Shown: positions 21,057 to 43,611 of the stretch, one piece after another
Layout: the number at the start of each line of letters is the position of its first letter
How positions within the stretch are numbered: the stretch's first letter is position 1
DNA from: Fibrisoma montanum
Lineage (GTDB): Bacteria > Bacteroidota > Bacteroidia > Cytophagales > Spirosomataceae
Length of the DNA stretch: 64,000 bases
Direction of reading: 5' to 3'
Assembly: GCF_003583365.1 (NCBI RefSeq)
Contig: NZ_QXED01000010.1
Span: 124,001 to 188,000 of the forward strand
Notes under the pieces: generated by a model
Databases searched by the model: none
The model's input: the letters and a program-made list of their open reading frames with translations, nothing else
Told to the model about the DNA's origin: nothing
Program-made: the position numbers and the translations under genes

Positions 21057-21965
21057 TCAGACCAGTTCCTTTTTCGCGTACTTTTCCTGCATCGTTTTGA
21101 TAAACGGCAGGCCCTTTTCGGCGATGTGCCACGGGTCGTTGTATTCGCGCCAGACCCCGATTGAATTGGCAAAATCAACGTCGTTGCGCGTGAAGGCTTC
21201 TATCGTCATCCAGCCCGTATAGTTCACCTCAGCCAGCGTCCGGAACGTTTCGTCCCAGGGAATGTGGTCGTCGCCGGGCGTACCGCGGTCGTTGGCACTG
21301 ATGTGGACGTGGGCCAGCACCGGCGCAATGGTACGTATGGCGTCCGGGAAGCGTTTCTCTTCCATGTTGGCGTGGTGCGTGTCAAACATGGCCCGTACGT
21401 TCGGGTGGTCGGTCAGCCGGATCAGATACTCCAGTTGTGCCATGGTGTTGCACAGGTAACACTCAAAGCGGTTGAGCGCTTCGGGTGTCAGCACGATATT
21501 GGCCTGTCTGGCGTACTCACCCGCGGCATGAAGTACTTCGGCACTGCGGGCGTATTCGTCCTGCTGCGGCTCCCGTCGACTGAAAGTTGCGAAGGCCGAG
21601 TGCATAGGTCCTGCGATCAGCGTGGCCCCCATGGCGTGGGCTCGGTCGATGGCCCCTTTCAGGTACGTAACGGCCTTCTCCCGAACCAAAGGCGATTCGC
21701 TCACCGGGTTCTCGTCCGGCCCGATCACCATCACGGTCGTGCTCCGCAAGCCAAGCTGATTCAGGTGATCGCCAAATTGCCGATATGCGCTGACGTCCTG
21801 GTTGTCGATAAAGCATTCGATGCCATCGTAGCCTATGGTTTTGAGCCGTTCGGTAATGGGATGCATCTTCTCCGATATCGATGCCGACCAGGCTAACAGG
21901 TTGAAGCCGATGGGTGAGCGTTGTGTTGATTCAGTTGCTGAAGGCATAGGAAACTGGTTTGACAT
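21057..21965 (-). CDS. TIM-barrel sugar phosphate isomerase/epimerase-like protein
   Basis: 302 residues starting at MSNQFPMPSATES (ATG at 21965); an ATG seven codons upstream is possible. It belongs to the AP-endonuclease-2-like TIM-barrel family. The metal-site regions are recognisable: TPEALNRFECYL (Glu), MFDTHHANMEE (Asp and His), HVHISANDRGTPGDDH (His) and WMTIEAF (Glu). Family members isomerise or epimerise keto sugars and inositol derivatives. It is the last gene of the leftward sugar locus, separated from the cytochrome fusion gene by a strong hairpin. A second paralogue lies at 31263-32324. Confidence 0.85.
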   Translation of the reverse strand: MSNQFPMPSATESTQRSPIGFNLLAWSASISEKMHPITERLKTIGYDGIECFIDNQDVSAYRQFGDHLNQLGLRSTTVMVIGPDENPVSESPLVREKAVTYLKGAIDRAHAMGATLIAGPMHSAFATFSRREPQQDEYARSAEVLHAAGEYARQANIVLTPEALNRFECYLCNTMAQLEYLIRLTDHPNVRAMFDTHHANMEEKRFPDAIRTIAPVLAHVHISANDRGTPGDDHIPWDETFRTLAEVNYTGWMTIEAFTRNDVDFANSIGVWREYNDPWHIAEKGLPFIKTMQEKYAKKELV

Positions 21966-22102
21966 GTTACGTGTCAAGGTCAACATTCCAACTTAAACGT
22001 CAGCCGGGCTGACAAGCTGAACCTGAAACCCTGACCCTGAAGCAACATGAATTATGGATGCTAGTGAGGTAATAACTTGTTAGCTAAGCCATTGATTCAT
22101 TG

Positions 22103-22186: not shown

Positions 22187-25100
22187 TTATCGGGCCGACA
22201 CATCTTTTTCCATCGGGTGTTCCTTAAGCAACTGCTCAGGAGTGTAAAAATCCTTTTTGCTTTCGATAGTCGCCCGGACTTTCTTTACCTTATCGGGGTA
22301 GACCGGCGCGGCCTGATTACCGAAGGCATTCCGCACGTACGTCAGCACGGCGGCTACCTCGCGGTCGTTCATCAACCCGCCGTAGGGTGTCATGGGAACC
22401 TGACCGGGGTAGGTTTTTCCATTTACCTCAATCGGTCCCATCAAGCCTTTCAGCACAATTTTGATCAGCCGCTCTTCGTCGCCCAGCACCCATTTGGTAC
22501 CCGACAACGGCGGGAAGCCGGATGCGGCCAGCCCCTTGCCATCGGGCTGGTGGCAGGTGATGCAATACCCTTCCTTGGCAAAAAGCTGCTTACCGAGCGT
22601 GTGCAGCGCCAGGTCTTCGCCCCGCAGATTCGAGGTCGTGGCAATCTCCTTTTCTTTCTTGACCGGTTCGCCTTTGAGGTGCGCCACAGCCGCTTCATGG
22701 GCGTGTACCATCCAGTCGTCCAGTGGCTTCTTCTGAGCTTCGGCCAGAATCGGCAGCCCTTTTTCCGGGCCAAGCCAGGAAGCGGCCACGATGGCCATCA
22801 ACCGAACCCGGCTGTTGTCGTCCCGAGCCGCCTGCATCAGCAGATTAGCCTGATCCGCCACCTGGTGACCGGTGTAACGTACGACCTGAACAGCCGCGGC
22901 TCTGGCCCGGTAATCCTTTGCGTTCAGCAGTTGGCGCAGGAGTTTCTGATCCACTTTGTTCAGGCCCCAGCTCACCCACAGCCCTTCGAGCAGGTGGTGT
23001 TCGTAGCGCGGGTCGTTTTTGTCGAGCTTCGCCACCCACGTATTCAGCTTCGCCAACACCTCATCTGTGTTCCGGCCGCGCAGTTCGCGACGGGTACGGT
23101 AGCGGGTGCGGTATTCGGGTAGTTTCAGATTGTCCAGCAGTTCGTCAATCGATGCACCGGCGACTTTGGCGGGCTGCACCAGCGGCCGCGACGGGTACGT
23201 AATTCGGTACACCCGTCCGTGCATGTGGTCGCGCAGCGGGTCGCGGGCGTTGTGCTGCATGTGCCCGATCAGGATGTTATGCCAGTCGATGACATACAGC
23301 GAGCCATCCGGCGCAAACTCCATGTCCACCGGCCGGAAGTTCCGGTCGTCGCTCACGATCAGATCCATCCGGTGGCGGCTCTTGTAACCTGTGCCCTCGT
23401 CTTCGAGCGTGTGCATTTTGGTACCCAGGAAACCGATGGTATTGTTGATCAGAAAATCGCCCTGTACCTCGTCCGGGAAGTGGCGGCTCGATACAAACTC
23501 GACCCCGGAGGTTGGTCGCACACGGTGGGCTTCCTCGATCAACTGCTTCGATTTGTGCGTCGATTCACCGTAGCGCGGCAGCACCGTACCGGGCAGCATC
23601 CAGCGGAAGTCGGGGCTCGACGTTTCAGCAAAGAAGGGCTGGCCCCACTCGTCGAAGGCAATACCCCAGGGGTTCGGGATGGCCAGCTGCGCGGTACGTT
23701 CCAGTTTTTTAAGCTGGGGGGCGTAGCGGTAGAAGCCGCCGTTGGTAGCCCGAACGGGGCCGTACGGTGTTTCTACGTTCGTATGCAGGAACACGCCTTC
23801 GCCGGAATAGATGGCTCCTGATGGATCGGTGGTGAACGCGTGGCTGTTGTGGTGGGTATCGTGATCATCGAAGCCACTCAGCAGGATCTCACTCTTATCG
23901 GCCCGGTCGTCGCCGTTGGTATCGACGTACAGCTTCAGGTTCGTACCCTGCGATACGTACACGCCCTCCGGTGCAATTTCGAAACCCAGCGGCAGGTGCA
24001 GTTTATCAGCGAAAACCGTTTCCTTGTCTGCTTTGCCGTCGTTGTTGGTATCTTCCAGAATGATGATCTTATCGTCCGGCTTCGGATCACCCGGCTTGTA
24101 GTGCGGGTAACTCGGCATGCAGGCCACCCACAACCGGCCTTTGTTATCGAACGACATCTGCATCGGTTTAGCCAGGTTAGGAAACTCCTTCTCCGACGCG
24201 AACAGTTCAATTTTATAACCCTCCGGCACTTTCAGTTTGCTGAGCGCATCCTGCCCGTAGAGATACGTCAGGCTACCGTTTTTCTGAGGGTTGTAATTCG
24301 TTTTTACTTCGGGCAATTGCCGGGTCCGGGCATCGGCGGCAGCCAGGTCCATTTTTTGCCCTTTGGCAGCCGCCAGCCAGATCGCGGTATCCCGGTTCGC
24401 CGTCATCTCGCGAATCTTCTCGATCTCTGCCGGGTAGTTGTCCGGCCCGAACGGGTTGTAGCGACGGCCGTAGACGTGCACACCATTCGGGATTTTGATG
24501 TCGTTGTGCCACATCCAGTCTTTCTCGATAACGGCGTCGTACACCAGCTTGCGGTTGGCTTCTGCCTTGACCGGCACCTTGCCGAAGACCTGGTCGGCCA
24601 GCAAAACGCCCAGCTTTTTGTAGCCTTCGTTGTTCAGTTGAAAGCCGTCGATGGTCAGCGGTTCTTTGCTGTCCTGGTACCACTTCTGCGAGGGCGTGAA
24701 CGCATCGACATAGATGACCGTTCCGGCGTTCCGGTTGTTCTGATCGGCCACTTCCTTCATGGCTTTGGCGTACAGTGCCAGGTTCACGTTTTCTTTTTTA
24801 CCGTTCGGCAGGTCATACATGGCCGACAAATCCTCGAACGCAATCGGCGAAACAAGCGCGAGTTGCGGGGGCGTCGTGCCGTTGTAGGGCTGCTTCAGCG
24901 TATGCTTAACAAACGCATCGAGTTCAGCTTTGTAGTTGGCCAGCCCGGCCGGTCCCTGAAACGATTCGTTGTAGCCGAAGAAGGCGATGATCACATCCGG
25001 TTTCAGGCGGGTAAGCCACTGGTCCGGCGAGTCAAAATGTCCTTCACTCTCGGAAGGCGTAGCCAGCTCGGTCTGGAATTTCTCGGCGCCCGGAAAAGCC

Positions 25101-25390
25101 CAGGGTGAAAACCGGCTGGCGTGGGGCCGGAACCCCGGCGTATCGCCCCCGTCGCACATGTTACGAATGTACAGCTGACTATCGGGGTAGCGCAGGTGCA
25201 TCTCGGTCTCGAAATGATCGTAATTCATCATCCGGGAGCCCAGGTTGTTGCCCAGCAGGACAATACGGGCGCCCTGCTTCACCTGCAGCGTCTGGGCGCT
25301 GTAGAACCGGAACGCACTAAATCCAATGACCAGGGCCAGGACGACGAGCAGACCGTAGATATTTCTTTTCTGGAGAATAAGCCGCTTCAT
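22187..25390 (-). CDS. SGNH-hydrolase / PVC-type membrane-bound dehydrogenase / cytochrome c fusion
   Basis: 1067 residues from ATG at 25390 (MKRLILQKRNIYGLL); the nine codons upstream overlap the neighbouring stop and are dropped. One N-terminal membrane anchor or signal. Residues about 35-270 form an SGNH/GDSL-type domain (RIVLLGNNLGSRMMN, then FFGYNESF). Residues about 380-730 form the beta-propeller of PVC-type dehydrogenases (LAKPMQMSFDNKGRLWVACM, DGSLYVIDWHNILIGHMQHN). HEAT-like helices follow (about 760-900). A cytochrome c domain carries heme motif CITCH (Cys943, Cys946, His947) and later MTPYGG for the Met ligand. Proteins of this build sit in the periplasm and oxidise sugars. It begins 4 bp after the ThuA stop, so the pair is one transcript. 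Confidence 0.88.
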   Translation of the reverse strand: MKRLILQKRNIYGLLVVLALVIGFSAFRFYSAQTLQVKQGARIVLLGNNLGSRMMNYDHFETEMHLRYPDSQLYIRNMCDGGDTPGFRPHASRFSPWAFPGAEKFQTELATPSESEGHFDSPDQWLTRLKPDVIIAFFGYNESFQGPAGLANYKAELDAFVKHTLKQPYNGTTPPQLALVSPIAFEDLSAMYDLPNGKKENVNLALYAKAMKEVADQNNRNAGTVIYVDAFTPSQKWYQDSKEPLTIDGFQLNNEGYKKLGVLLADQVFGKVPVKAEANRKLVYDAVIEKDWMWHNDIKIPNGVHVYGRRYNPFGPDNYPAEIEKIREMTANRDTAIWLAAAKGQKMDLAAADARTRQLPEVKTNYNPQKNGSLTYLYGQDALSKLKVPEGYKIELFASEKEFPNLAKPMQMSFDNKGRLWVACMPSYPHYKPGDPKPDDKIIILEDTNNDGKADKETVFADKLHLPLGFEIAPEGVYVSQGTNLKLYVDTNGDDRADKSEILLSGFDDHDTHHNSHAFTTDPSGAIYSGEGVFLHTNVETPYGPVRATNGGFYRYAPQLKKLERTAQLAIPNPWGIAFDEWGQPFFAETSSPDFRWMLPGTVLPRYGESTHKSKQLIEEAHRVRPTSGVEFVSSRHFPDEVQGDFLINNTIGFLGTKMHTLEDEGTGYKSRHRMDLIVSDDRNFRPVDMEFAPDGSLYVIDWHNILIGHMQHNARDPLRDHMHGRVYRITYPSRPLVQPAKVAGASIDELLDNLKLPEYRTRYRTRRELRGRNTDEVLAKLNTWVAKLDKNDPRYEHHLLEGLWVSWGLNKVDQKLLRQLLNAKDYRARAAAVQVVRYTGHQVADQANLLMQAARDDNSRVRLMAIVAASWLGPEKGLPILAEAQKKPLDDWMVHAHEAAVAHLKGEPVKKEKEIATTSNLRGEDLALHTLGKQLFAKEGYCITCHQPDGKGLAASGFPPLSGTKWVLGDEERLIKIVLKGLMGPIEVNGKTYPGQVPMTPYGGLMNDREVAAVLTYVRNAFGNQAAPVYPDKVKKVRATIESKKDFYTPEQLLKEHPMEKDVSAR

Positions 25391-25394
25391 ACCG

Positions 25395-26288
25395 TCACGA
25401 TTTTTTAGGGTGGCCATACGGCACGTTGATGTTCATTTTACCTTTCCACCGCTTCGGCACCGGCTGGCCCAGCTCCCAATGAATGGCATTGATAACCAGG
25501 CGCTGCACCGGCTCTTCCCGGAAGTCTTCGGGGTGGCCCAGCGTGGTCAGAAACGCCTTACCGCCCCACTGGTTCTGCCAGGTCCAGGCCACTGGATTCT
25601 CAGTAGCCTCCTTGTCGGGATTAACCGCTTTGCCCATCAGCAGGGGCACCGCCCCTTTGGGTGGGTAGTCCGGCTTGACCCGATACAGCCACGAGGCTGC
25701 GTGAAAGCTCGGCTCAACGCCGGTCAGGATGGGGTGTTTGGCGGCTTCGGGTATGACCGTTACGTCGGTGGTGCTGTTGTGGCCGTAGTGCGTATGCTTG
25801 GCCGCACCGCCCCAGCCCGGAGGACTCCCAAACGCAAACTCTCCGAAGGCATTCCACCGCCGACGGTCGTCGCCTTCCGGGTAGTTGAACGCGTGGGTGG
25901 TCGTGCGGAAACCCATCACCGGCTTACCGGATTTCAGGTAATTCTCGATGTGATTGAGCTGCTCCTGGGGCAGCAAGCGCCACCGCAGGAAAAACACCGC
26001 CAGGTCGGCCTCTTTCAGGACTTCGAGACCGGGAATGTCTTTTTCGCCGTTGTAGTCCGGCACCGACTTCAGGACAGTTGTCCGCATGCCGTAGTTTTTT
26101 TCCAGTTCGGCAGCAAACAGCGGCATTGTTTCTTCACTGCTGTATTCATGATCGCCGGTTACGAACACGACGTACGGTTTATTGGCATTGCTCGCCGAAG
26201 CGGCAACGGAATCCGTCCAGGTCGACAGGCCGCCTACCGCCAGTAAGCTGGCAGCCTGTTGTAAAAAATCTCGGCGTTGGGTTTTCAT
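25395..26288 (-). CDS. ThuA-like domain protein, Tat-exported
   Basis: 297 residues. The start MKTQRRDFLQQAASLLAVGG has the twin-arginine export motif (QRRDFL), so the folded protein goes to the periplasm. The body is a ThuA (trehalose-utilisation) type, class-I glutamine-amidotransferase-like fold: FVTGDHEYSSEETMPLFAAE, DLAVFFLRWRLLPQEQ and a closing FLTTLGHPEDFREEP. Biochemical roles of ThuA are poorly settled; related proteins accompany 3-keto-sugar pathways. It follows the sugar-binding protein gene after 70 bp and precedes the SGNH-cytochrome gene by 4 bp. Confidence 0.88.
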   Translation of the reverse strand: MKTQRRDFLQQAASLLAVGGLSTWTDSVAASASNANKPYVVFVTGDHEYSSEETMPLFAAELEKNYGMRTTVLKSVPDYNGEKDIPGLEVLKEADLAVFFLRWRLLPQEQLNHIENYLKSGKPVMGFRTTTHAFNYPEGDDRRRWNAFGEFAFGSPPGWGGAAKHTHYGHNSTTDVTVIPEAAKHPILTGVEPSFHAASWLYRVKPDYPPKGAVPLLMGKAVNPDKEATENPVAWTWQNQWGGKAFLTTLGHPEDFREEPVQRLVINAIHWELGQPVPKRWKGKMNINVPYGHPKKS

Positions 26289-26358: not shown

Positions 26359-27306
26359 TTAGTCGGGCTTTTTCATAAACTGAGCCACGTTGGTTTTCGT
26401 GACCAGCTGAAACGGGATCAGCGTTTCTTTCTCAACCGACTGGCCTTTAGCCAGTTTTACGGCAGCCTCGATGGCTTTCGACCCCTGCTGTTCGGCGTTC
26501 TGAAACACCGTAGCGTCCAGCGTTCCTTTCTGAACGGCCTGCAATGCATCCGGAATGGCGTCGATGCTGACAACAATGACTTTGGTTTTCAGTCCGGCGT
26601 CGGTCAGGGCTTTTACGGCACCCATACCCATTTCGTCGTTGTGCGCAAATACGGCGTTGATTTCGGTCCCGTAGGATTGAATCCAGTTTTCCATGAGGCT
26701 CATGGCCTTGGCCCGGTCCCATTCGGCGGTCTGGTGGGCGATGAGCTTCAGGCCGGGATACTGTTTCAAAATTTCCCGGGCGCCCTGCTCCCGTTTGATC
26801 TGGGCAGCCTGCCCCATGTACCCGTGCATCATCACGACGTTCCCTTTTCCGCCGAGTTTTTCGGCAATGAACGTCATCGCCATGCGGGCGGATTCCACAT
26901 CGTCGGAACCGACAAAGGCCGACGGTTTGGTGCTGGTTTCGGAGTTTACGTTGATGATGGGAATCTTCGCGGCCAGGGCTTTTGCTACGGCCGGCGAACT
27001 GGCCTCCACTTCGCAGGGGTTCATGATGATAGCGTCGACTTTCTGGGCGATGAAGCTTTCCACCTGCTCGACCTGCTTCAACGCCGACCGCTCCGCATCC
27101 ACGGTGATCAGATCAACGCCGGCCTGCTCGGCTTTCCTGGCCATTTCGTCGTTGACATTGACGATAAACTCGTTTTGCATGCTGAGCATGGTAGCCCCCA
27201 CAACGAGTTTTTTGCCCCCGTCGCCCTGGCTGTTTTCGGTGGATTGGTTACTACAGCCGGTAAGGAGTGATGCCGTGATAACTAAGGTCAGGACTGTCGA
27301 TTTCAT
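26359..27306 (-). CDS. Sugar ABC transporter substrate-binding lipoprotein (RbsB type)
   Basis: 315 residues. The lipobox LLTGC ends a signal peptide at about residue 18, followed by a Ser/Asn/Gly linker. The mature part is a type-I periplasmic binding protein of the ribose/galactose class, with LVVGATMLSMQNEF, VDAIIMNPCEVEASSPAVAK, SAFVGSDDVESARMA and NAVFAHNDEMGMGAVKAL. It would capture a monosaccharide or cyclitol and hand it to the permease at 27398-28375. The ligand cannot be told; the aromatic residues that stack on sugar rings are only partly conserved with RbsB. Confidence 0.92.
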   Translation of the reverse strand: MKSTVLTLVITASLLTGCSNQSTENSQGDGGKKLVVGATMLSMQNEFIVNVNDEMARKAEQAGVDLITVDAERSALKQVEQVESFIAQKVDAIIMNPCEVEASSPAVAKALAAKIPIINVNSETSTKPSAFVGSDDVESARMAMTFIAEKLGGKGNVVMMHGYMGQAAQIKREQGAREILKQYPGLKLIAHQTAEWDRAKAMSLMENWIQSYGTEINAVFAHNDEMGMGAVKALTDAGLKTKVIVVSIDAIPDALQAVQKGTLDATVFQNAEQQGSKAIEAAVKLAKGQSVEKETLIPFQLVTKTNVAQFMKKPD

Positions 27307-27316
27307 GGTATTGTCT

Positions 27317-27397: not shown

Positions 27398-28375
27398 CTA
27401 CTTCCGGTTCACACTATCCAGCACAACGGCACCGATGATGATGACGCCCATCACAACCTGCTGGTAATACGACGATACGTTGAGTAAATCCAGACCGTTG
27501 CTGATGACGCCGATCAGCAAGGCGCCAATCAACGTACCCGTCATGGTTCCGGTGCCGCCCGACGTACTGGTGCCTCCGATGATGGCCGCGGCAATGGCGT
27601 CGAGTTCAAACCCGGCTCCGGCGTTGGGCTGGCCCGTCGTGATGCGCGAGGTCAGGACAATCCCGGCCAGAGCTGCCAGCAGGCCACTCATGGTGTAAAC
27701 CGCCATTTTGATGTTGCTAATCTGGATACCCGACGCTCTGGTTGCCTGCTCATTGCCTCCCACGGCGTACATATAGCGCCCCAGTACGGTCTTTTTCAGG
27801 ATGACAGAGCAAACCGCGAACATACTGATCAGAATGATGATCGGCATGGGTACGCCCAGCACCTGACCGCCCCCGATAAAATTAAATGAGTCGGATAAGT
27901 TAGAGATTGGTCGGCCTTTGCTCAGGATCAAAGCCAGCCCACGCCCGATGGTCATGGTGCCCAGCGTAACGATAAACGGCGGGACTTTGCTGCGGGTAAT
28001 CACGAACCCGTTGAAAGCCCCGAAGAGCACACCACTCAGCAATCCGGCCAGAACGGGCACGATCACCGGATACGTATCCTGGCGGGCGAACAGGGCTGCG
28101 ACTACGCCCGTTACGGCCACCATTGAACCTAGCGACAGATCGATGCCACCGGTGATGATAACGAACGTAACTCCGAACGCCAGCAACGCATTGATCGATA
28201 CCTGCGTCACGATAATCATCAGGTTCGGGACGGTCAGAAAGCGGGGTGTGACCAGCGAAAGTATAACACAAATCACGATGAACGCCACAAAAATCCCGGC
28301 TTTTCCAAGGCGGCTGACGCGGGTTTTGTACGACTCCCGCACCGGTTTGAAGTAGGTATCGATCGCGTTTTTCAT
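27398..28375 (-). CDS. Sugar ABC transporter permease (RbsC type)
   Basis: 325 residues with about eight to ten membrane helices. It shows the signature regions of the BPD_transp_2 family: PNLMIIVTQVSINALLAFGV, GGIDLSLGSMVAVTGVVAAL, PPFIVTLGTMTIGRGLALIL, and DAIAAAIIGGTSTSGGTGTM, which contains the contact loop for the ATPase. It would form a homodimeric channel in the inner membrane. The start codon is 4 bp after the ATPase stop, so translation is probably coupled. Confidence 0.93.
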   Translation of the reverse strand: MKNAIDTYFKPVRESYKTRVSRLGKAGIFVAFIVICVILSLVTPRFLTVPNLMIIVTQVSINALLAFGVTFVIITGGIDLSLGSMVAVTGVVAALFARQDTYPVIVPVLAGLLSGVLFGAFNGFVITRSKVPPFIVTLGTMTIGRGLALILSKGRPISNLSDSFNFIGGGQVLGVPMPIIILISMFAVCSVILKKTVLGRYMYAVGGNEQATRASGIQISNIKMAVYTMSGLLAALAGIVLTSRITTGQPNAGAGFELDAIAAAIIGGTSTSGGTGTMTGTLIGALLIGVISNGLDLLNVSSYYQQVVMGVIIIGAVVLDSVNRK

Positions 28376-30063: not shown

Positions 30064-31236
<1,173 letters not shown>

Positions 31237-35942: not shown

Positions 35943-38651
35943 TTACTTGCCCTTCGCGCCACCGTCTGTGCTCTTATACACCTCGTGGCTCTGGTTCCCG
36001 CCCGACTTCAGATACGCCATCAGGTCGCGTAGTTCGTCGGGATTCAGGCTGTTGATCAGCCCCGGCAGCATGATCGACACGGTCGAATACTTCTTCGATG
36101 TTACGTCCTTCTTCGGAATCTTGCGTAGCTGATCCGGCGCGAACGGGTTCTGTGAAATCGAGTAATTCACTTTGTCTTCGCTTACCAGCCGCCCCAGCAC
36201 CGACTGACCGTTTTTCAGCAAGAAAATGGTCGACGCATACTGGTCTGATACGGCCTTGTCGGGATGAATAATCGCTTCCAGCATGTCTTTATTCGAGAAG
36301 CGCGTACCCAGCTGGGTCAGGTCCGGCCCGATGTCTCCGCCTTCGCCCCGCATCGAGTGGCAGCGGCTGCACAGCACGGCCGAATAGATTTTTCGACCCC
36401 GATCGAAATCCCGACTCCCCATAGCACTGTCCACTATGGCCACCGCATTGTCGAGCTTCCAGGGACGGCCCGGTCCTTTGGGCGTATAGTCCAGGGCCAG
36501 ATCATTGCCGGACTTAGTCAGCAGCTCCCCACCCGATAGCTTATCGTACCGCGCAACCTGGTCTTTGGGCACATGAGCCATGGCCAGTTTGCGGGCTCTG
36601 TCGATGAAGCCGACGTAGCTGCGGCCACCCTGGTATTTGAATGCATTGGCAAACCAGGTAAAGTATTTGTTGCGGAGTTCGGGCGTCCAGCCGGTTTCCT
36701 GACGGCTCAGCATAACGGCGTAGAACGTCTGCTGCAGCGGTGGTACCTTCTCCAGCATCTTGGCGATGTCCAGCCCATACTGCGGGTTGCGCAGAATCAG
36801 ATCCGACGAGGCCGTAGCGGTTTCGAGCCCAAGATCCTTGCTGCCCGGTTCATCCTTCAGGTCCATCAGCGCCAGCGTTTTCGACACGACGCCCGGTGCT
36901 TCGAGGTAAATTAACACCCGGCTCAGGCCCCGGTTCATCAGCGCAGTTTTAGCTGGATAGCGTGGATTCAGGTAAGCAATCACCTTTTCTTTGTCGGCCG
37001 GGTCGGGCATACCCATGCGCGTAAACACCAGTTCAAACGCCCGCACCAGATCAAACTGCTGCGCTTCGGACAACGAACCCATGTTGATCTTCATCAGGGC
37101 ATTCAGCAGTTTGCCCTTCAGAGCGGCATCTCCATGCCGGGCGAGTGCAATGATTGCCTGCGTTGCCCGTTGCGGATCGGTTTCCGTCAACGCCTTGTCC
37201 TGCCACTGGCTCACGGGCTGGTGTTCAACGGCCAGCCGGGCTGCATACCGGACAAACCGATCCGGGTGGTTCAGGTTAGGCCAGGCGGCTGCCAGAGCTG
37301 CCGGATTGGGTTTGCCGTGGTATTGCTCCAGTTCCGTTCTGAGTTGGCGCTCTTTAGAAGAAGCCGGCGCTTTGGCAACGGCCTGGGTCGACTCAGACCC
37401 GCCGTAGTACACCCGATACAGGTCCGATTCCAGCCGACGACCACCCGTCAGGAAGTACAGGGCGCCGTCCGGCCCGATGGCGCCATCCGTCAGGGGTAGT
37501 GGCGACCCCGATACGAATTCTTCGCGCTCAGCTTCATACGAAGCGCCTTTCGGTTTCAGATAAATGGAATAGATGATGCCGAAGCTCCAGTCGAAGGCGT
37601 ACAGCGACTGGCGATATTTTTGCGGAAACCGGGCGTTCTGGCCGTAGAGCAGGTTGGTTGGCGACCCCTGTCCGATGTTCAGCACCGGAGGCAGGTTGTC
37701 GGGATTAGCCGGCAACCACTTGCCGTTACCCGTACGCCAGCCAAATTCACTGGCGCTGGTCGCGTGGCAGATACGCGTAGGCCGGTACCAGGGCAAACCG
37801 AAATCCCACTCCATGTCCGAGTCATAGGTAAACATATCCCCGGCCTCGTTGAACGCAATGTCGAATGCGTTGCGGTAGCCGGCGCTGACCAGCTCCCAGC
37901 GTTTGCCCTCGGGATCGATGTTGGCAATCCACCCTCCGGGCGCGTTGCGGGTGGCGGCATGACCACGCGGATCCGTAATTTTGGGAAACAGGTTATCGTC
38001 CTGCCAGTTGGCGGGCAGCCGGTACGCATCCATTTCCGGAACGTCGGTATGGTTCCCGCAGATCACGTAAAGCGACTGCTTGTCGGGCGACAGCACGATG
38101 CTGTGCGGCCCGTGTTCGCCCTCCCCTTTCAGGGCTTTCAGCAGCGTTACTTTGTCGAACTGGTCGTCGCCGTTGGTATCCTGCAGGCGATACAACCCAC
38201 TGCTCTTTTCAAAGTTCTTGTTCTCCCGGTTGTTCACCATGACGTACAGGCTGTTGAAGGCGTACAACAGACCCTGCGCGTAGCCCATGCCTACTTTTGA
38301 ACTCGTATCGCCGGGCTGCACAGCCCCTATCTGAAGCTTTTCGATTTTAGGCTGTCCACCCGACCCGATCGGCGGCATTTCGAGCCGGTACAGGAACCCG
38401 TACTGGTCGGAGGTGATCATCCGGCCTTTATCGTCGAATGCCATCGCCACCCACGACCCCTGTTTGTTGTCGGATGGGCTATACAGGTGTTCGGCTTTAA
38501 AACCAGGGAGTAGTTTTAGTTTATCCAGCTTAGGATTGTCGGGCGCTGATTTCGCCGATTCCGAGCTCTGCATGCTAATCCAGGACGTTCCGATCAGAAC
38601 GAGGGCCACGACGGCTAATCCGAGTTTGGCCTTGTTGACTTTAGAAAACAT
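35943..38651 (-). CDS. PVC-type dehydrogenase with HEAT-like region and cytochrome c domain
   Basis: 902 residues from ATG at 38651 (MFSKVNKAKLGLAVVALVLI), a signal peptide or anchor; 28 upstream codons are dropped. A beta-propeller occupies about residues 30-410 (SWVAMAFDDKGRMITSDQYG, GPHSIVLSPDKQSLYVICGN, DIAFNEAGDMFTYDSDMEWD). A helical repeat region runs at about 430-690. The C-terminal heme domain has CSRCH (Cys761, Cys764, His765) and GDIGPDLTQLGTRFS, ending with PDELRDLMAYLKSGG. It would oxidise a sugar in the periplasm and pass electrons to the respiratory chain. It lacks the SGNH domain of its counterpart at 22187-25390. Confidence 0.9.
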   Translation of the reverse strand: MFSKVNKAKLGLAVVALVLIGTSWISMQSSESAKSAPDNPKLDKLKLLPGFKAEHLYSPSDNKQGSWVAMAFDDKGRMITSDQYGFLYRLEMPPIGSGGQPKIEKLQIGAVQPGDTSSKVGMGYAQGLLYAFNSLYVMVNNRENKNFEKSSGLYRLQDTNGDDQFDKVTLLKALKGEGEHGPHSIVLSPDKQSLYVICGNHTDVPEMDAYRLPANWQDDNLFPKITDPRGHAATRNAPGGWIANIDPEGKRWELVSAGYRNAFDIAFNEAGDMFTYDSDMEWDFGLPWYRPTRICHATSASEFGWRTGNGKWLPANPDNLPPVLNIGQGSPTNLLYGQNARFPQKYRQSLYAFDWSFGIIYSIYLKPKGASYEAEREEFVSGSPLPLTDGAIGPDGALYFLTGGRRLESDLYRVYYGGSESTQAVAKAPASSKERQLRTELEQYHGKPNPAALAAAWPNLNHPDRFVRYAARLAVEHQPVSQWQDKALTETDPQRATQAIIALARHGDAALKGKLLNALMKINMGSLSEAQQFDLVRAFELVFTRMGMPDPADKEKVIAYLNPRYPAKTALMNRGLSRVLIYLEAPGVVSKTLALMDLKDEPGSKDLGLETATASSDLILRNPQYGLDIAKMLEKVPPLQQTFYAVMLSRQETGWTPELRNKYFTWFANAFKYQGGRSYVGFIDRARKLAMAHVPKDQVARYDKLSGGELLTKSGNDLALDYTPKGPGRPWKLDNAVAIVDSAMGSRDFDRGRKIYSAVLCSRCHSMRGEGGDIGPDLTQLGTRFSNKDMLEAIIHPDKAVSDQYASTIFLLKNGQSVLGRLVSEDKVNYSISQNPFAPDQLRKIPKKDVTSKKYSTVSIMLPGLINSLNPDELRDLMAYLKSGGNQSHEVYKSTDGGAKGK

Positions 38652-38802
38652 GGTGATGTTGCATAAGGGGTTGACAGAATTCCATTGGCCCGAGTTCTTG
38701 TCTGATTTATAGCCGCAGTTGGCTTTTTCAGGCATTACTAAGAGATAGATACCCGGCTTATTCTACTGATTAATTTGCGGGCACGAACCAAAATATCGTT
38801 TA

Positions 38803-38850: not shown

Positions 38851-40377
38851 TCAGAAGTTTGGAGTCAGCGCAGCTTCAACGGCCGGCAATGGATAATACA
38901 CCTCCAGATTAGTGAACGCGTTCGGTGGGGGCACCGCACCGCTTGGGAAGTAATACTCCTGCGGGTTGGCCTTGATGCGGGCGCCGTAGGCGGTGATAAT
39001 TTCGTTAACCCGACCGGTCCGGACCAGGTCATACCACCGCTTATTTTCAAACGCCAGCTCAACGCGTCTTTCTCTAAAGATGGCTTCACGTAGGCTGGCC
39101 TGCGAACCAGCCGCAGCAGCCGTCAGCCCCGCCCGGCTGCGCACCTGATTCAGGAACGGGACAGCCTCGGCCGTTTTACCCTGCTCGTTCAGGGCTTCGG
39201 CCAGGAACAGCAGTACCTCAGCGTACCGATACACCGGCCAGTTCTGACCCGTATTGTTGTGCTGCGAGTGAGGCCGGGCGTACTTCTTGATGTACGGGTA
39301 GGTTTTATTAGCCCGTAAGCTCTGGCTCAGCGTCACGGTACCGATGGATATGTCTTTCCGCTTATCGCCCGGCTCGTAGGCGGCAATGATATCCGGCGTC
39401 GGAACGTTGTTGTTTTCGCCGGAGATTGCCTGCGGGTTCGACGTACCGGTAATGGGCCTCAGCTCATCGGCCGTGATCGGTGCCGGAATAAACCGGTAAA
39501 TCTGGTTCCCGTTCAGACCGGCCGGCCCTTCGATGTATTGCACCTCAAAGACCGACTCCCGGTTGTTTTTGTTACCCGTCGTGGTCGAGAAGGCATCATT
39601 GTAATCGGGCAGCAGCAAATACTCCCCGCTGGTGACGATCTCCCGGAGCAGGGTTTCGGCCTGGGGCCATTTCTTCTGAACCATGTACAGGTTGGCCAGC
39701 AGCATTCGGGCGGCCCCCGAGGTTGCCCGTCCCCCTTCCTGATCCTTCTTCAGCGGCAGCAGTTTGATCGCTTCCGCAACATCCTTTTCCACCTGCGCGT
39801 ACAACTCAGTCGCTTGTGCCAGGGGCTTTGCCGCCCCTTCGCGGTCGGCTACCGGGGTCAGGTGCAGGGGCGCTTTGCCGAACAACTGAGCCAGCTTGAA
39901 GTACGCAAAACCCCGGAGAAAATAGGCCTGTCCCTTCAGGTTATTCTTCGAGTCGGTACTTCGCTGATCGGTGCCAAACGACACATTATCAATCAGAGCA
40001 AGCACCTGATTAGCCCGCGCAATGATCTGGTAGTTCAGACGGTATATGTTCAGAATAATCGTATTGGCGCTGAGCCCGCCGGCATTCAGTATGGCAAAGT
40101 CGGCCAGATTCTGGGTGTTATCCACCGCCCCAAACAGCACGTTCCGGGCGTAGTAGGTATTGTCGGAGTGCATCTCCTCCAGAGCCCAGGCCGCTTCGTT
40201 GTACATCGGCCGCAGCGGTACGTAAATGGCGTTCACCGCCTGCTGAAAGTCGGCTTCTTTGGTAAAGAAAGTAGCCGAGCTCAACGCGGTCTCGGGCACC
40301 ACGGTGAGAAACGTATCGTTGTTGCAACTCGTCACAGACAGGCCGATCAGACTTGCTAAAAGGATTTTCTTTTTCAT
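38851..40377 (-). CDS. SusD/RagB-type nutrient-binding outer-membrane lipoprotein
   Basis: 508 residues. Lipobox LSVTSC near residue 18, then the SusD-like N-terminal region (ATFFTKEADFQQAVNAIYVP), a tetratricopeptide-like helical core (LKGQAYFLRGFAYFKLAQLF, EGGRATSGAARMLLANLYMV) and the C-terminal SusD domain with FLAEALNEQGKTAEAVPFLN and ERRVELAFENKRWYDLVRTG. It caps the SusC barrel encoded 39 bp upstream and binds the external ligand. Ligand specificity cannot be read. Confidence 0.95.
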   Translation of the reverse strand: MKKKILLASLIGLSVTSCNNDTFLTVVPETALSSATFFTKEADFQQAVNAIYVPLRPMYNEAAWALEEMHSDNTYYARNVLFGAVDNTQNLADFAILNAGGLSANTIILNIYRLNYQIIARANQVLALIDNVSFGTDQRSTDSKNNLKGQAYFLRGFAYFKLAQLFGKAPLHLTPVADREGAAKPLAQATELYAQVEKDVAEAIKLLPLKKDQEGGRATSGAARMLLANLYMVQKKWPQAETLLREIVTSGEYLLLPDYNDAFSTTTGNKNNRESVFEVQYIEGPAGLNGNQIYRFIPAPITADELRPITGTSNPQAISGENNNVPTPDIIAAYEPGDKRKDISIGTVTLSQSLRANKTYPYIKKYARPHSQHNNTGQNWPVYRYAEVLLFLAEALNEQGKTAEAVPFLNQVRSRAGLTAAAAGSQASLREAIFRERRVELAFENKRWYDLVRTGRVNEIITAYGARIKANPQEYYFPSGAVPPPNAFTNLEVYYPLPAVEAALTPNF

Positions 40378-40416: not shown

Positions 40417-43400
40417 TTAGAAATTCAGGTTAACACCAACGGTGAACGTACGCGGAACCGGGTAGTTCGACAGGTCGACCCCCTGGCTCAGGTTACCGCC
40501 ATCACCCTGGCCATCGTTCTGAGCGCTGGTTTCGGGGTTCGGGCCACCCGTGTACTTCGTGAACACATATACCTGCTGAGCCGAAGCGTACACCCGGGCC
40601 GAATTGAAAAATTTCCTCAGAGCGCCGAAGGTATAGCCCAGCGTGATGTTCCGGATGGTGAAGAACGAGGCATCGGCTACAAAAAGCGAACTGGGCCAGT
40701 CGCGCTCGATGCCGGTGAAGTTACCACCGCCGTTGGTGGCCCCGAACATCCCCTTGCCCGGTGTGATCACATTGCCCCGGCTATCCACCCGGAAGCGGTC
40801 TTTTACGCCGGCCACCATGTTGAACACGCCATCCAGGTTCGCCGTACTGTACAGGTGACGCACCCACAACTGGTTACCGTAGGAACCGGAACCCGTAATC
40901 GACATATCCCAGTTGCCGTAGCGCAGGTCGTTCACAATCCCGTACGTGAACTTCGGGAAGGGGTTTCCAATGATGGCCCGGTCGTCGGTATCACCACCGA
41001 ACGTGATTACGCCATCGCCGTTCACGTCCCTCAGCTTGATCGTACCGACCGCCGAACGGCCGGGGATAACGGGCGAACTTCTCAGCTCCTCGGCGCTCAT
41101 GTAGAAGCCGTCCTTGACCAGCCCGTAGAACTGACCAAAAGGCTGGCCTACCTGCGTGATGTGGAATAAGCCATACACCCGGTCGATGCCGGGAGCCAGC
41201 GCTACCACCTGGTTCCGGTTGAAGGAGATATTGGCGTTGGTATTCCACTTCAGCTTACCGGTGGTATTGCGGGTGTTCAGCGCGAACTCATGACCCCAGA
41301 ATTTAATCTCACCAATGTTGTCGTTGAAGTTCGTGAAGCCCGACTCCTGCGGCAATTGAACGGCATACAGCAGGTTGGTAGTCCGCTTGGTATAGAAGTC
41401 GTACACAAAACTGATGCGGTCGTTCAGCAGGCCCAGGTCGAGACCGAGGTCGAGCTGCTTGGTGGTTTCCCAGCCCAGGTTGGGGTTGGCAATGGAGGTA
41501 ACCACCGCTCCCGGCGCAACCGTGCTGCCAAACGCTGCGTTCACCGTATTATTCACCAGCGCGTACTGGGTGTAGTTACCGATGTTGTTGTTACCAATGA
41601 TTCCGTAGCTGGCCCGCACTTTGGCAAACGAAACCGGGGTAAAGGTCTTCATGAAATTTTCGTCGGAAATTACCCAACCTGCTGAAACCGACGGGAAGGT
41701 ACCCCAGCGGTTGTTAGCCCCAAAGCGCGACGAACCATCGGTCCGGATAGCTGCCGTAAACAGGTATTTGCCCTTGTAGTTGTACGTCAGGCGCGAGAGA
41801 TACGATAACAGGCTCCACTGGTTTATGGCATTGGTAGAACCCGCACGGTTTATGTTCAGCCCCCCCTGAATGGTCGGTAGCCGATCATCGGCGTACGTAT
41901 CGGCCTGAATACGGGTTATATCCTGACTATAACGCTGCTGCGTAAAACCGGCGAGTAACTCGAAGTTATGCGCATCGTTAAAGCTCCGGGTGTACGTAGC
42001 CAGGTTCTCGTTCAGCCAGGAGATGTCTTCCCGGTTCTGGCGGATCGAAACGGCCAGCGTCGGAATGGGCACGTTGATCTGGCTGGTTGCCGTCGATGGG
42101 TTGAAGAAGAAGAACCGCGAGTTCAGGTATTCGACGTTGATGGTCGACTTCAGCGTCAGGCCCGGAATCGGTGAATACTGCGCATAGGCGTTGGCAAGTA
42201 GGTTCGTATTCTTGGTCTCGTTGGTCAGCTCACTGGCGGCCCGTACCCAGTTCGGATACGAAAAAATGTTACCCGTGCTGCCAGGGAAGCGGTTCACCAG
42301 CGTCAGATTACCCTGGTCGTCCCGGATAGGCATCACCGGCCAGGTATGCAGGGCGTTGAACAGAATACCCGTACCGCGGTCACCGTCGGTCCGGGGCGTA
42401 TTGTCAAATACGTACGAAGGCGCTACGTTGAAACCAACCGTGATTTTGTCAGACAGGTTGTAGTTGGAGTTCATCCGCAGCGAATAGCGCTTGTACTTGT
42501 TGTTGATCACTACGCCATCCTGGTTAAAGATACCGGCCACCAGCGATGTATTTGAGCGCTCGGTGTTACTGGAAATCGTCAGGTTATAGCTCTGAATCGG
42601 TGCATCCCGCAGAACGGCACCATACCAGTCGTTGTCTTTGTCGGCCCAGCTTGCCGGATTCTGGAACTCAGTCGGTACGGCCTGGCCCTGATCTTCGTAA
42701 TACTCTTTCTTGAACTGCGCAAATTCCTGAGCGTTCAGCATCTTGATTCGGCCGCGTTCCGGAACCTGCTGCGTACCAGCGAAGGCGTTAAAGCTGATGT
42801 TGGTCTTACCGCTTTTTCCTCTTTTGGTCGTGATCAGTACTACGCCGTTGGCCGCCCGCGATCCGTAAAGCGAGGTCGAAGCGGCATCTTTCAGAATAGA
42901 AATGTCGTCAATTTCGTCGGGGTTCAACTGCGCGATGTTACCCGTAATCGGGAACCCATCGACCACATACAGCGGATCGCTACCGGCCGTTACCGAAACC
43001 TGTCCCCGAACCCGGATGTTGATACCCGCTCCCGGCCGGCCGGTGGTCTGGTTGATCTGTACCCCGGCTAACCGGCCCTGCAGTTTCTGACCGACCTGCG
43101 ACACGGGAATGTCTTTGATCTCCTGCGCGCTCACGGTCTGTACGGCACCCGTCACTTCTTTTTTCACCTGGCTACCGTAACCGACGACCACCACCTCGTT
43201 CAGCGTCTGATCGTCCGGAACGAGCCGGATGTTGAACGTCGTCTGCGTACCAACCACCGCTTCCTGCCGGCCGTAGCCCACGAAGCTGAAGACCAGGGTT
43301 GCGTTGGTGTTAGGCACCGCCAGCCGGAAACTCCCCTGGCTGTCGGTTGTGGTTCCCTGCGACGTACCTTTCACCACCACGCTTACGCCCGGAAGGCCAT

Positions 43401-43611
43401 TGCCCTGCTCATCGGTCACTTTGCCCGATACAGGAATTTCGGCGACAGACGTACTCTTATTTTGTTCGGGCTGCCTGCGTGTATTCATGGCAACCTGCTG
43501 CCCGTCCTGGCGTGTAAGAGCCGGTTGTCTGTTACTACTTTGTCCATGAACAAAGCCTGTGCAGAAACCGGCCACCATACTAACGGTCACAACCTGATAG
43601 ATACGTTTCAT
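40417..43611 (-). CDS. SusC/RagA-type TonB-dependent outer-membrane transporter
   Basis: 1064 residues. Signal peptide at about 1-24. A carboxypeptidase-regulatory-like domain (about 56-140: VSGKVTDEQGNGLPGVSVVV) is followed by the TonB-box-like NEVVVVGYGSQVKKEVTGAV. The plug domain contains DPLYVVDGFPITG, then the SusC signature DDISILKDAASTSLYGSRAA followed by NGVVLITTKRG. The rest is the 22-stranded barrel, ending in FTVGVNLNF with the terminal aromatic residue needed for barrel insertion. It imports the substrate captured by the SusD partner using TonB/ExbBD energy. No sigma/anti-sigma pair is adjacent. Confidence 0.96.
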   Translation of the reverse strand: MKRIYQVVTVSMVAGFCTGFVHGQSSNRQPALTRQDGQQVAMNTRRQPEQNKSTSVAEIPVSGKVTDEQGNGLPGVSVVVKGTSQGTTTDSQGSFRLAVPNTNATLVFSFVGYGRQEAVVGTQTTFNIRLVPDDQTLNEVVVVGYGSQVKKEVTGAVQTVSAQEIKDIPVSQVGQKLQGRLAGVQINQTTGRPGAGINIRVRGQVSVTAGSDPLYVVDGFPITGNIAQLNPDEIDDISILKDAASTSLYGSRAANGVVLITTKRGKSGKTNISFNAFAGTQQVPERGRIKMLNAQEFAQFKKEYYEDQGQAVPTEFQNPASWADKDNDWYGAVLRDAPIQSYNLTISSNTERSNTSLVAGIFNQDGVVINNKYKRYSLRMNSNYNLSDKITVGFNVAPSYVFDNTPRTDGDRGTGILFNALHTWPVMPIRDDQGNLTLVNRFPGSTGNIFSYPNWVRAASELTNETKNTNLLANAYAQYSPIPGLTLKSTINVEYLNSRFFFFNPSTATSQINVPIPTLAVSIRQNREDISWLNENLATYTRSFNDAHNFELLAGFTQQRYSQDITRIQADTYADDRLPTIQGGLNINRAGSTNAINQWSLLSYLSRLTYNYKGKYLFTAAIRTDGSSRFGANNRWGTFPSVSAGWVISDENFMKTFTPVSFAKVRASYGIIGNNNIGNYTQYALVNNTVNAAFGSTVAPGAVVTSIANPNLGWETTKQLDLGLDLGLLNDRISFVYDFYTKRTTNLLYAVQLPQESGFTNFNDNIGEIKFWGHEFALNTRNTTGKLKWNTNANISFNRNQVVALAPGIDRVYGLFHITQVGQPFGQFYGLVKDGFYMSAEELRSSPVIPGRSAVGTIKLRDVNGDGVITFGGDTDDRAIIGNPFPKFTYGIVNDLRYGNWDMSITGSGSYGNQLWVRHLYSTANLDGVFNMVAGVKDRFRVDSRGNVITPGKGMFGATNGGGNFTGIERDWPSSLFVADASFFTIRNITLGYTFGALRKFFNSARVYASAQQVYVFTKYTGGPNPETSAQNDGQGDGGNLSQGVDLSNYPVPRTFTVGVNLNF

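What the first reader, a model, noticed from the sequence alone, without database searches (positions are those of the whole stretch)
21057..43611. Co-directional sugar locus: SusCD, two cytochrome-c dehydrogenases, DUF1080, Gfo/Idh/MocA, TIM-barrel isomerases and an RbsABC importer
All genes from 43.6 kb down to 21.1 kb point the same way. The gene kinds seen form a complete route: outer-membrane uptake (SusCD), periplasmic oxidation (two PVC-type dehydrogenases with CxxCH), non-classical cleavage of a keto-glycoside (DUF1080), an inner-membrane importer (RbsABC) and cytoplasmic isomerisation/oxidation (two TIM-barrel proteins, Gfo/Idh/MocA, DUF4432, a PMI-like cupin). No glycoside hydrolase, polysaccharide lyase or sugar kinase was recognised. 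Established knowledge: DUF1080 and Gfo/Idh/MocA proteins take part in 3-keto-sugar pathways. Inference: this locus degrades a glycoside or cyclitol oxidatively.
Basis: partly seen in the sequence, partly recalled or inferred. Interest (0 to 1): 0.8.

Follow-up and report, generated by a model that had tools for sequence, protein, structure and literature searches.

The report
Conserved oxidative sugar-breakdown gene cluster
Fourteen neighbouring genes of a Bacteroidota bacterium look like one pathway that takes up a sugar compound and breaks it down by oxidation rather than by ordinary hydrolysis; a core of the same genes stays together in many related bacteria, but the sugar it uses is still unknown.

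Summary
None of the 14 matched a glycoside hydrolase, lyase or kinase family. The cluster is real: in 52 named relatives with at least 8 kb on both sides, the cupin gene has DUF4432 nearby in 50, TIM2 in 49, Gfo in 51, DUF1080 in 49 and PVC2 in 37. SusCD, RbsABC, TIM1, ThuA and the second PVC protein recur but are optional. The 407-aa cupin has no Pfam or NCBIfam family, only a weak profile link to mannose-6-phosphate isomerase with matching metal-site residues. The PVC2 head folds like PQQ sugar dehydrogenases but loses two arginines of that site; PqqC and PqqE were not found above cut-off. Gfo is nearest to levoglucosan dehydrogenase at half its cut-off. Best reading: periplasmic oxidation plus DUF1080 cleavage, then import and cytoplasmic keto-sugar salvage. 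Substrate, oxidised carbon and direction of the Gfo step are inferred. Relatives with inositol-like or aldonate genes keep two rivals open.

The parts
40417..43611 (-). SusC-type TonB-dependent outer-membrane transporter (1064 aa)
   Evidence: TIGR04056 846 bits, cut-off 368; in 22 of 52 full loci
38851..40377 (-). SusD-type lipoprotein (508 aa)
   Evidence: PF07980/PF14322; 22 of 52 full loci
35943..38735 (-). PVC2: beta-propeller, HEAT-like part and cytochrome c (930 aa, CSRCH); candidate periplasmic sugar oxidase
   Evidence: TIGR02603 94 bits (cut-off 68), TIGR02604 74 bits (below 122); propeller model matches PQQ sugar dehydrogenases; hhalign 93.6% to GSDH; 37 of 52 full loci
34958..35743 (-). 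DUF1080 / 3-keto-disaccharide hydrolase family, signal-like N-terminus by eye (261 aa)
   Evidence: PF06439 121 bits, cut-off 26.8; family cluster in 49 of 52 full loci
33786..34856 (-). DUF4432, aldose-1-epimerase-like (356 aa)
   Evidence: PF14486 325 bits; PDB 3ty1 E 1.4e-23; 50 of 52 full loci
32493..33716 (-). UNK407: unannotated PMI-like cupin, candidate isomerase (407 aa)
   Evidence: no Pfam/NCBIfam; profile to 1qwr E 8e-4 with E152 and H220 on its GKxE and VPxGxLHA motifs; full-length copy at 75% identity or more in 63 of 291 order genomes, own included
31263..32324 (-). TIM2: deviant xylose-isomerase-like TIM barrel (353 aa)
   Evidence: PF01261 40 bits; fold model and Foldseek; candidate metal ligands E173 or E175, D204, H254, D311 invariant in 39 sequences (assignment mine)
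30064..31236 (-). Gfo/Idh/MocA dehydrogenase, nearest to levoglucosan dehydrogenase (390 aa)
   Evidence: NF052479 345 of 650 bits; PDB 4h3v 346 bits, 6a3f 281 bits; best of 38 matches in the genome
28380..29879 (-). RbsA-type ABC ATPase
   Evidence: 23 of 52 full loci
27398..28375 (-). RbsC-type permease
   Evidence: 22 of 52 full loci
26359..27306 (-). RbsB-type sugar-binding protein, lipobox-like start by eye
   Evidence: PF13407; 21 of 52 full loci
25395..26288 (-). ThuA-domain protein, twin-arginine-like start by eye (297 aa)
   Evidence: PF06283 60 bits; 15 of 52 full loci; overlaps the next gene by 23 nt
22187..25417 (-). PVC_GDSL: GDSL-like stretch, DUF7133 propeller, HEAT, cytochrome c (1076 aa, CITCH)
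   Evidence: PF23500 245 bits; TIGR02604 229 bits over cut-off; GDSL 26 bits, below 32.9; 9 of 52 full loci
21057..21986 (-). TIM1: ketose-3-epimerase-like TIM barrel (309 aa)
   Evidence: PF01261 138 bits, D-psicose 3-epimerase model 141 of 300 bits; 21 of 52 full loci

Best explanation
One pathway, split by the inner membrane. SusCD brings a small glycoside or similar sugar compound into the periplasm (inferred). PVC2, a propeller of the sugar-dehydrogenase fold joined to cytochrome c, oxidises it and passes electrons to the respiratory chain (inferred). The DUF1080 protein cleaves the resulting 3-keto-glycoside by elimination or hydrolysis (inferred from its family). RbsABC imports the keto-sugar or glycal (inferred). 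In the cytoplasm DUF4432 (anomer or epimer change), the PMI-like cupin (aldose-ketose type isomerisation), TIM2 (isomerisation, epimerisation or hydration) and Gfo (NAD-linked redox step, probably reduction of the keto group) turn it into a common hexose; no kinase is encoded here. ThuA, PVC_GDSL and TIM1 form a second, optional sub-module. Shown: gene content, clustering, predicted folds of PVC2 head and TIM2, kept metal-site residues. Inferred: every reaction, their order and the substrate.
For: Clustering: DUF4432 50, TIM2 49, Gfo 51, DUF1080 49, PVC2 37 of 52 full loci, nearly all on the cupin's strand, in several orders. UNK407 (at least 74% identity) and TIM2 (at least 68%) occur in the same 10 of 395 phylum genomes; TIM2 also in G420. 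PVC2 head: PDB ranks 1-20 are soluble PQQ-type glucose/aldose/sugar dehydrogenases or AA12 (best E 7e-14, TM 0.56-0.62, 11-19% identity); hhalign to GSDH 93.6%, E 2e-7, with H149 and R229-N230 on the GSDH His and Arg-Asn. DUF1080 proteins are tied to 3-keto-trehalose and 3'-keto-lactose hydrolysis, and a Caulobacter locus with a transporter, two epimerases and a reductase is a precedent (PMC9007349, passages). TIM2 folds with ketose 3-epimerases, 3-keto-glucoside 4-epimerase and 2-hydroxy-3-keto-glucal hydratase.
Against: PVC2 loses the Arg-x-Arg pair of the PQQ site (P355/T357), and neither PqqC nor PqqE was found above cut-off (no control genome passed the cut-off either, so absence is not proven). 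PVC2 is not seen in 15 of 52 full loci. TIM2 and TIM1 occur with no DUF1080, DUF4432 or UNK407 in the 20 kb of L206 and L208, next to inositol-like or aldonate genes. A GH130-family protein is near the core in 7 of 93 loci, so classical enzymes are not absent everywhere. No equivalog cut-off is passed by any of the five cytoplasmic enzymes.
Confidence: 0.45

Rival explanations
1. Cyclitol pathway: an inositol isomer or methyl-inositol is imported, oxidised by Gfo (inositol/inosose dehydrogenase), and isomerised or opened by the TIM barrels and hydrolase-like partners.
For: Gfo hits scyllo-inositol/L-glucose dehydrogenase (160 bits); the relative L206 carries TIM2-Gfo beside an IolM-like dehydrogenase (144 of 450 bits) and an IolG-like Gfo (111 of 355 bits); TIM1 hits IolO (109 of 300 bits) and c12 hits IolE (72 of 290 bits); RbsABC-type importers carry inositols (recalled).
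Against: Gfo is closer to levoglucosan dehydrogenase (345 bits) than to IolG (130 bits); DUF1080 is in 49 of 52 full loci and I know of no role of it with cyclitols; none of these matches reaches a curated cut-off.
Confidence: 0.17
2. Aldonate pathway: the periplasmic PQQ-like propeller oxidises an aldose at C1 to a lactone; the acid is imported and processed.
For: Soluble PQQ sugar dehydrogenases (top folds) oxidise C1 (recalled). In L208 the PVC_GDSL-ThuA-TIM2-TIM1-c12-c13 block sits next to a GntP permease over cut-off (304 against 293 bits) and a dihydroxy-acid-dehydratase-family protein just under the L-arabinonate dehydratase cut-off (854 of 882 bits); c13 of L170 resembles an enol-lactonase (121 of 256 bits).
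Against: No aldonate dehydratase is among the 14 window genes or among the recurrent unlabelled neighbour families whose representatives were scanned (10 representatives; six further recurrent families were not scanned); a 3-keto-linked family (DUF1080) is nearly constant.
Confidence: 0.14
3. Anhydrosugar pathway of the levoglucosan type: Gfo makes 3-keto-levoglucosan, a TIM barrel eliminates it, another hydrates it.
For: Gfo is the best of 38 NF052479 matches in its genome (343 bits; next 186) and shares LQDW with 4h3v and levoglucosan dehydrogenase 6a3f where scyllo-inositol dehydrogenase 5ya8 has DEDY; the published route is Gfo + TIM + TIM + Gfo with an ABC importer (PMC7676230 part 1 of 4, PMC10066097 parts 1 and 3 of 5).
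Against: 345 bits against a curated cut-off of 650; SusCD, DUF1080 and PVC2 have no place in that route, and the cupin and DUF4432 are not named in the parts of those papers that I read.
Confidence: 0.1
4. Several independent small operons that merely adjoin.
For: Four gaps of 168-200 nt, three of them with inverted repeats; SusCD, RbsABC, ThuA and TIM1 are optional.
Against: All five core partners stay with the cupin in 33 of 52 full loci from 24 of 33 groups, in more than one order; 12 of 93 loci hold these plus SusCD and RbsABC; PVC_GDSL, ThuA and TIM1 lie with TIM2 in L206 and L208 even where UNK407 is missing.
Confidence: 0.06

Closest known systems
3-keto-glycoside catabolism with DUF1080 (Bacteroides BT2157 and neighbours, Caulobacter lac locus)
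   Same: DUF1080 protein with a secreted-type N-terminus, Gfo/Idh/MocA enzyme, TIM-barrel epimerases, a transporter (PMC9007349 passages; the BT2158-2160 roles are recalled)
   Different: No LacABC-type or BT_2158-type oxidase among the 14 genes; the candidate oxidase is a propeller-cytochrome fusion; extra DUF4432, PMI-like cupin and the deviant TIM2; no activity known
Levoglucosan (LgdA/B1/B2/C) pathway
   Same: Nearest curated family of the Gfo; TIM barrels and an ABC importer
   Different: Gfo at half the curated cut-off; outer-membrane and periplasmic oxidative parts; cupin and DUF4432
PQQ-dependent soluble aldose dehydrogenases / AA12 pyranose dehydrogenases
   Same: Fold of the PVC2 head; histidine and Arg-Asn motif aligned
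   Different: Two arginines of the site not kept; joined to HEAT-like part and cytochrome c; PqqC and PqqE not found above cut-off in the genome
Class I mannose-6-phosphate isomerase
   Same: Weak profile match to UNK407, metal-site Glu and His kept
   Different: No kinase in the cluster; own family, with 34-51% distant members, two of which lie beside an FGGY kinase (L093) or tetritol-type genes (L105)

Membership tests
Levoglucosan dehydrogenase (NF052479) | score over curated cut-off 650 bits | tested here: not met
   345 bits, 343 in genome search
Levoglucosan dehydrogenase (NF052479) | oxidises levoglucosan at C3 | not testable with these tools
   needs an enzyme assay
DUF1080 / 3-keto-disaccharide hydrolase family (PF06439) | Pfam domain over gathering score | tested here: met
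   121.4 bits against 26.8
DUF1080 / 3-keto-disaccharide hydrolase family (PF06439) | activity on 3-keto-glycosides | not testable with these tools
   family-level knowledge only (PMC9007349 passages)
PQQ sugar dehydrogenase (GSDH, PF07995 / AA12) | Pfam GSDH match of the PVC2 head | tested here: not met
   4 of 27 heads match, best E 0.069; the window's own head does not
PQQ sugar dehydrogenase (GSDH, PF07995 / AA12) | sugar-dehydrogenase propeller fold | tested here: met
   predicted model only; other propellers (HHIP, strictosidine synthase) follow from rank 21
PQQ sugar dehydrogenase (GSDH, PF07995 / AA12) | PQQ-site residues (His, Arg-Asn, Arg-x-Arg; residue roles recalled) | tested here: inconclusive
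   His and Arg-Asn aligned and invariant in 27 sequences, Arg-x-Arg lost
PQQ sugar dehydrogenase (GSDH, PF07995 / AA12) | PQQ available (biosynthesis genes) | tested here: inconclusive
   no PqqC match; 3 PqqE-like matches, best 66 of 381 bits; no control genome over cut-off in either; uptake possible
Mannose-6-phosphate isomerase class I (UNK407) | curated family match | tested here: not met
   no Pfam or NCBIfam family at E 0.001
Mannose-6-phosphate isomerase class I (UNK407) | metal-site residues | tested here: met
   GKxE and VPxGxLHA align with 1qwr, invariant in A4; the site roles are recalled
D-psicose/ketose 3-epimerase (TIM1) | score over curated cut-off 300 bits | tested here: not met
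   141 bits
Polysaccharide utilisation locus (PUL) | SusCD pair with carbohydrate-active enzymes | tested here: inconclusive
   SusCD present; no glycoside hydrolase or lyase family among the 14; DUF1080 is the only glycan-cleaving candidate
Inositol catabolism (Iol) | IolG/IolE/IolO equivalogs over cut-off | tested here: not met
   130 of 355, 38 of 290 and 109 of 300 bits; an IolM-like protein only in relative L206

The most novel reading that the evidence does not exclude
A widespread, uncharacterised Bacteroidota pathway for non-hydrolytic glycoside breakdown in which the oxidant is a new kind of heme-linked sugar dehydrogenase (a PQQ-dehydrogenase-fold propeller with an altered cofactor site, wired to its own cytochrome c), followed by a four-enzyme cytoplasmic salvage line (DUF4432, PMI-like cupin, deviant TIM barrel, LGDH-like Gfo), members of which have no assigned function.
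Probability: 0.35. Interest if true: 0.75.

Novelty: new variant of a known kind. Interest (0 to 1): 0.52.

Why it matters
Hydrolases dominate the picture of sugar use in Bacteroidota (general knowledge). It gives concrete, testable proteins for three poorly known groups: PVC-type cytochromes, DUF4432 and the unannotated cupin.

Tried and rejected
Levoglucosan pathway proper: rejected as membership because the Gfo scores 345 of 650 bits. No genome of 148 in the order passes the cut-off, but that search used a limit of E 1e-150, scored only part of the candidates in many genomes and rang in no control, so it is weak. PQQ biosynthesis: PqqC and PqqE not found above cut-off, kept as inconclusive; LacABC-type dehydrogenases elsewhere in the genome were not searched. 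PVC-type genes beside DUF1080 elsewhere in the genome: 3 of 17 DUF1080 loci within 12 kb against 0.71 expected, P 0.033 by uniform placement, and the window's own pair is one of the three: weak. Mutual exclusion of PVC2 and the c12/c13 pair: 4 both, 33 PVC2 only, 12 c12 only, 3 neither of 52 loci (p 3e-6), but p 0.02 at group level (4, 23, 4, 2 of 33 groups), so not relied on. Promoters: no TTG-N17-22-TAnnTTTG motif (recalled Bacteroidota consensus) on the minus strand of 20.9-44.5 kb. Plasmids: UNK407 one hit (Arthrobacter, 34%), TIM2 none. Paper searches: searches gave mostly unrelated listings; any two of PVC-type heme-binding, ThuA and DUF1080 found 0 papers; DUF4432 with sugar found 1, unrelated by its abstract. 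So 'uncharacterised' rests on these searches of one open-access library only. The 2024 Nature work on a broad-specificity glycan pathway is recalled only; the levoglucosan dehydrogenase structure paper is not held.

Full report
What is there. The window lies in a 7.79 Mb genome; in the one scan of named species genomes the best cupin match is Fibrisoma limi, 96% identical (records very near the window may be left out there). Fourteen genes run on the minus strand from 43611 to 21057: SusC, SusD, PVC2, DUF1080, DUF4432, UNK407, TIM2, Gfo, RbsA, RbsC, RbsB, ThuA, PVC_GDSL and TIM1. They add ThuA and the DUF7133 domain (with a below-cut-off GDSL stretch) of the second cytochrome. None of the 14 matched a glycoside hydrolase, polysaccharide lyase or sugar kinase family. 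Reading the N-termini by eye (no predictor run), SusD and RbsB have lipobox-like starts, DUF1080 and PVC_GDSL a hydrophobic start, PVC2 one behind an internal Met29, ThuA a twin-arginine-like start, and DUF4432, UNK407, TIM2, Gfo and TIM1 none.

Is it more than a chance run? UNK407 was searched in 291 genomes of the order: 79 match at E 0.001 or better; by my count of the list 63 (own included) hold a full-length copy at 75% identity or more, 2 hold copies in pieces and 14 only weak PMI-like hits. In 395 phylum genomes 29 match: 10 at 74% or more, 1 at 51%, 8 at 35-40%, 10 weak. Neighbouring ORFs of these 80 and of 13 hand-picked unnamed loci were grouped by single linkage (35% identity, 70% length). 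Fifty-two of the 80 have at least 8 kb on each side of the cupin. In these its partners are DUF4432 50, TIM2 49, Gfo 51, DUF1080 49, PVC2 37, SusD 22, SusC 22, RbsA 23, RbsC 22, RbsB 21, TIM1 21, ThuA 15 and PVC_GDSL 9. The 28 shorter loci were dropped from that count; over all 80 the first five are 76, 64, 63, 59 and 56. Thirty-three of 52 have all five, from 24 of 33 genus-level groups (labels typed from titles). With P, D, M, U, T, G for PVC2, DUF1080, DUF4432, UNK407, TIM2, Gfo, the orders are PDMUTG 18, DMUTG 13, PMUTGD 10 and eight other strings 11 in all, some of which only lack a gene or an ORF call. The middle M-U-T-G block is thus rarely broken, while P and D move. Same-strand counts are 50 of 50, 49 of 49, 51 of 51, 46 of 49 and 35 of 37 for the five partners. 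The 80 were the best-scoring hits, so they lean towards close relatives.

Independent phyletic test. TIM2 at 68% or more occurs in 11 of the 395 phylum genomes: the same 10 that hold UNK407 at 74% or more, plus G420; five others hold TIM2 at 52-57% (the shared handles show the same draw). Against strict coupling, these six lack a close UNK407. I fetched five of the six (G653 left out) and read them. In L206 (G420) TIM2-Gfo lies with an alcohol dehydrogenase, an SDR, a second Gfo and PVC_GDSL, and with TIM1 and ThuA on the other strand. In L208 (G492) TIM2 lies with SusCD, PVC_GDSL, ThuA, TIM1, c12, c13, a GntP permease and an L-arabinonate-dehydratase-like protein. In L207 and L209 PVC_GDSL-like and other cytochrome genes lie upstream of TIM2 on its strand (Pfam on L207 only). 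In L210 the script labelled nothing; one search places a TIM2 match there, so my ORF caller probably chose another frame. So the ThuA-PVC_GDSL-TIM1 end of the window is tied to TIM2 independently of UNK407 in two genomes, and the chemistry around TIM2 varies.

What the parts are. UNK407: no family; profile match to mannose-6-phosphate isomerase 1qwr, E 8e-4, with GKxE and VPxGxLHA aligned; mean column identity 86% over 32 sequences. Distant members sit in L093 beside an FGGY kinase, an aldo-keto reductase and glycoside hydrolases, in L092 beside a GH31, and on an Arthrobacter plasmid beside dihydroxyacetone-kinase-family, RpiB and TPI-family genes. An aldose-ketose isomerase role is likely but not shown. 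TIM2: model with mean pLDDT 82, with weak stretches at 177-180 and 265-271; Foldseek puts it with ketose 3-epimerases, 3-keto-glucoside 4-epimerase YcjR, 2-hydroxy-3-keto-glucal hydratase AtHYD and xylose isomerase, at 15% identity or less in the 50 rows shown, so only the class is assigned; a sequence profile found no convincing PDB relative (best E 0.62). E173, E175, D204, H254 and D311 are invariant in 39 sequences and lie at or just after the strands where this fold holds its metal (my placement). Gfo: 345 bits to the levoglucosan dehydrogenase model, cut-off 650; 346 bits to 4h3v, 281 to levoglucosan dehydrogenase 6a3f, 160 to scyllo-inositol dehydrogenase 5ya8; it shares LQDW with 4h3v and 6a3f, where 5ya8 has DEDY.

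PVC2. A model of residues 60-455 (27 sequences, pLDDT 80) was compared with the PDB: ranks 1-20 are soluble glucose/aldose/sugar dehydrogenases of the PQQ type or AA12, with E from 7e-14, TM 0.56-0.62 on the query and 11-19% identity; hedgehog-interacting protein and other propellers follow. hhalign against three GSDH proteins of the same genome gives 93.6%, E 2e-7 (shallow profiles). The GSDH histidine and Arg-Asn align with invariant H149 and R229-N230 of the cut-out head; the Arg-x-Arg pair does not (P355, T357). Residue roles are recalled from the Acinetobacter enzyme. Pfam GSDH matches 4 of 27 heads, best E 0.069. PqqC has no match and the 3 PqqE-like matches are below cut-off; in neither search did a control genome pass the cut-off, so absence is not proven. 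The protein may use scavenged PQQ or another cofactor, or not be a dehydrogenase.

How it probably works. DUF1080 proteins are linked to 3-keto-trehalose and 3'-keto-lactose hydrolysis, and a Caulobacter cluster with a transporter, two epimerases and a reductase is proposed to use the keto-sugar (PMC9007349, passages). The levoglucosan route shows Gfo oxidation, TIM-barrel elimination and hydration and Gfo reduction of a keto-sugar (PMC7676230 part 1 of 4, PMC10066097 parts 1 and 3 of 5). A 3-keto-C-glycoside lyase with a divalent metal acts by the same elimination (PMC13273386, part 1 of 3 and passages). I therefore place oxidation (PVC2) and cleavage (DUF1080) in the periplasm and the four core enzymes in the cytoplasm. 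The DUF1080 presence in 49 of 52 full loci is the main support for keto-glycoside chemistry over a cyclitol; this genome alone has 17 DUF1080 genes over cut-off, so the family is common. PVC2 is not seen in 15 of 52 full loci, 8 of them Dyadobacter by title. Five of those 15 (L124, L163, L169, L170, L176) carry Gfo2, with a Tat-like start by eye; Gfo2 is nearest to the BT_2158 glycoside 3-dehydrogenase model (139 of 750 bits). It would be a plausible replacement oxidase, but L085 and L162 hold both it and PVC2, and nothing was tested.

Against a purely non-hydrolytic picture, a GH130-family protein lies near the core in 7 of 93 loci (Pfam on one representative).

Verdict. The unit is real and well conserved; the oxidative reading is the best of several; the substrate is open. 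It is a new variant of known oxidative sugar catabolism, with two or three orphan proteins that make it worth a bench test.

Noticed in passing
window 32353-32489, 29965-30052, 38802-38851, 27316-27384, 35865-35913: Five gaps inside the run hold inverted repeats (20-40 nt arms, 85-100% complementary). A 17-base part of the 29965-30052 palindrome recurs: 14 sites with up to one mismatch in the genome, several as facing pairs about 60 bp apart, 0 in the reversed control. REP-like dispersed elements.
   Followed up: partly
window 44009-47333: BlaI-type repressor plus two M56 (BlaR1-like) proteins; one carries a CarboxypepD_reg and a TonB plug domain (SusC-like end on a sensor peptidase), the other a TonB C-terminus.
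   Followed up: no
L208:4742-17542: PVC_GDSL, ThuA, TIM2, TIM1, c12, c13 in a row followed by a GntP permease, an L-arabinonate-dehydratase-like gene and an FAA-hydrolase-family gene: an aldonate-linked version of the module.
   Followed up: partly
L105 (Arthrobacter plasmid): A 34%-identical relative of the cupin, annotated hypothetical protein, stands at the end of an Rbs-type ABC / dihydroxyacetone-kinase-family / RpiB / TPI-family gene run that looks like tetritol catabolism (the tetritol reading is recalled).
   Followed up: no
L093-L097: A second, similar context of the distant cupin in five loci; in L093, the only one scanned, it has GH10-like, alpha-amylase, GH2, aldo-keto reductase and FGGY kinase genes.
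   Followed up: no
L100, L103, L114, L141, L147, L159, L161 and others: A PSCyt1/DUF1549/DUF1553 protein and a DUF1501 protein are adjacent in 10 of 93 loci; the DUF1501 gene stands directly before PVC2 in 8 (Pfam on one representative each). Another orphan pair tied to this pathway.
   Followed up: no
L124, L163, L167, L169, L170, L176, L184: A GH130-family protein (cluster c21, Pfam on L170 only) lies upstream of DUF1080 in these seven loci, all Dyadobacter by title.
   Followed up: no
window 18967-21012: A histidine kinase and a LytTR response regulator on the plus strand converge on the end of the run; no sign that they belong to it was looked for beyond the one query.
   Followed up: no
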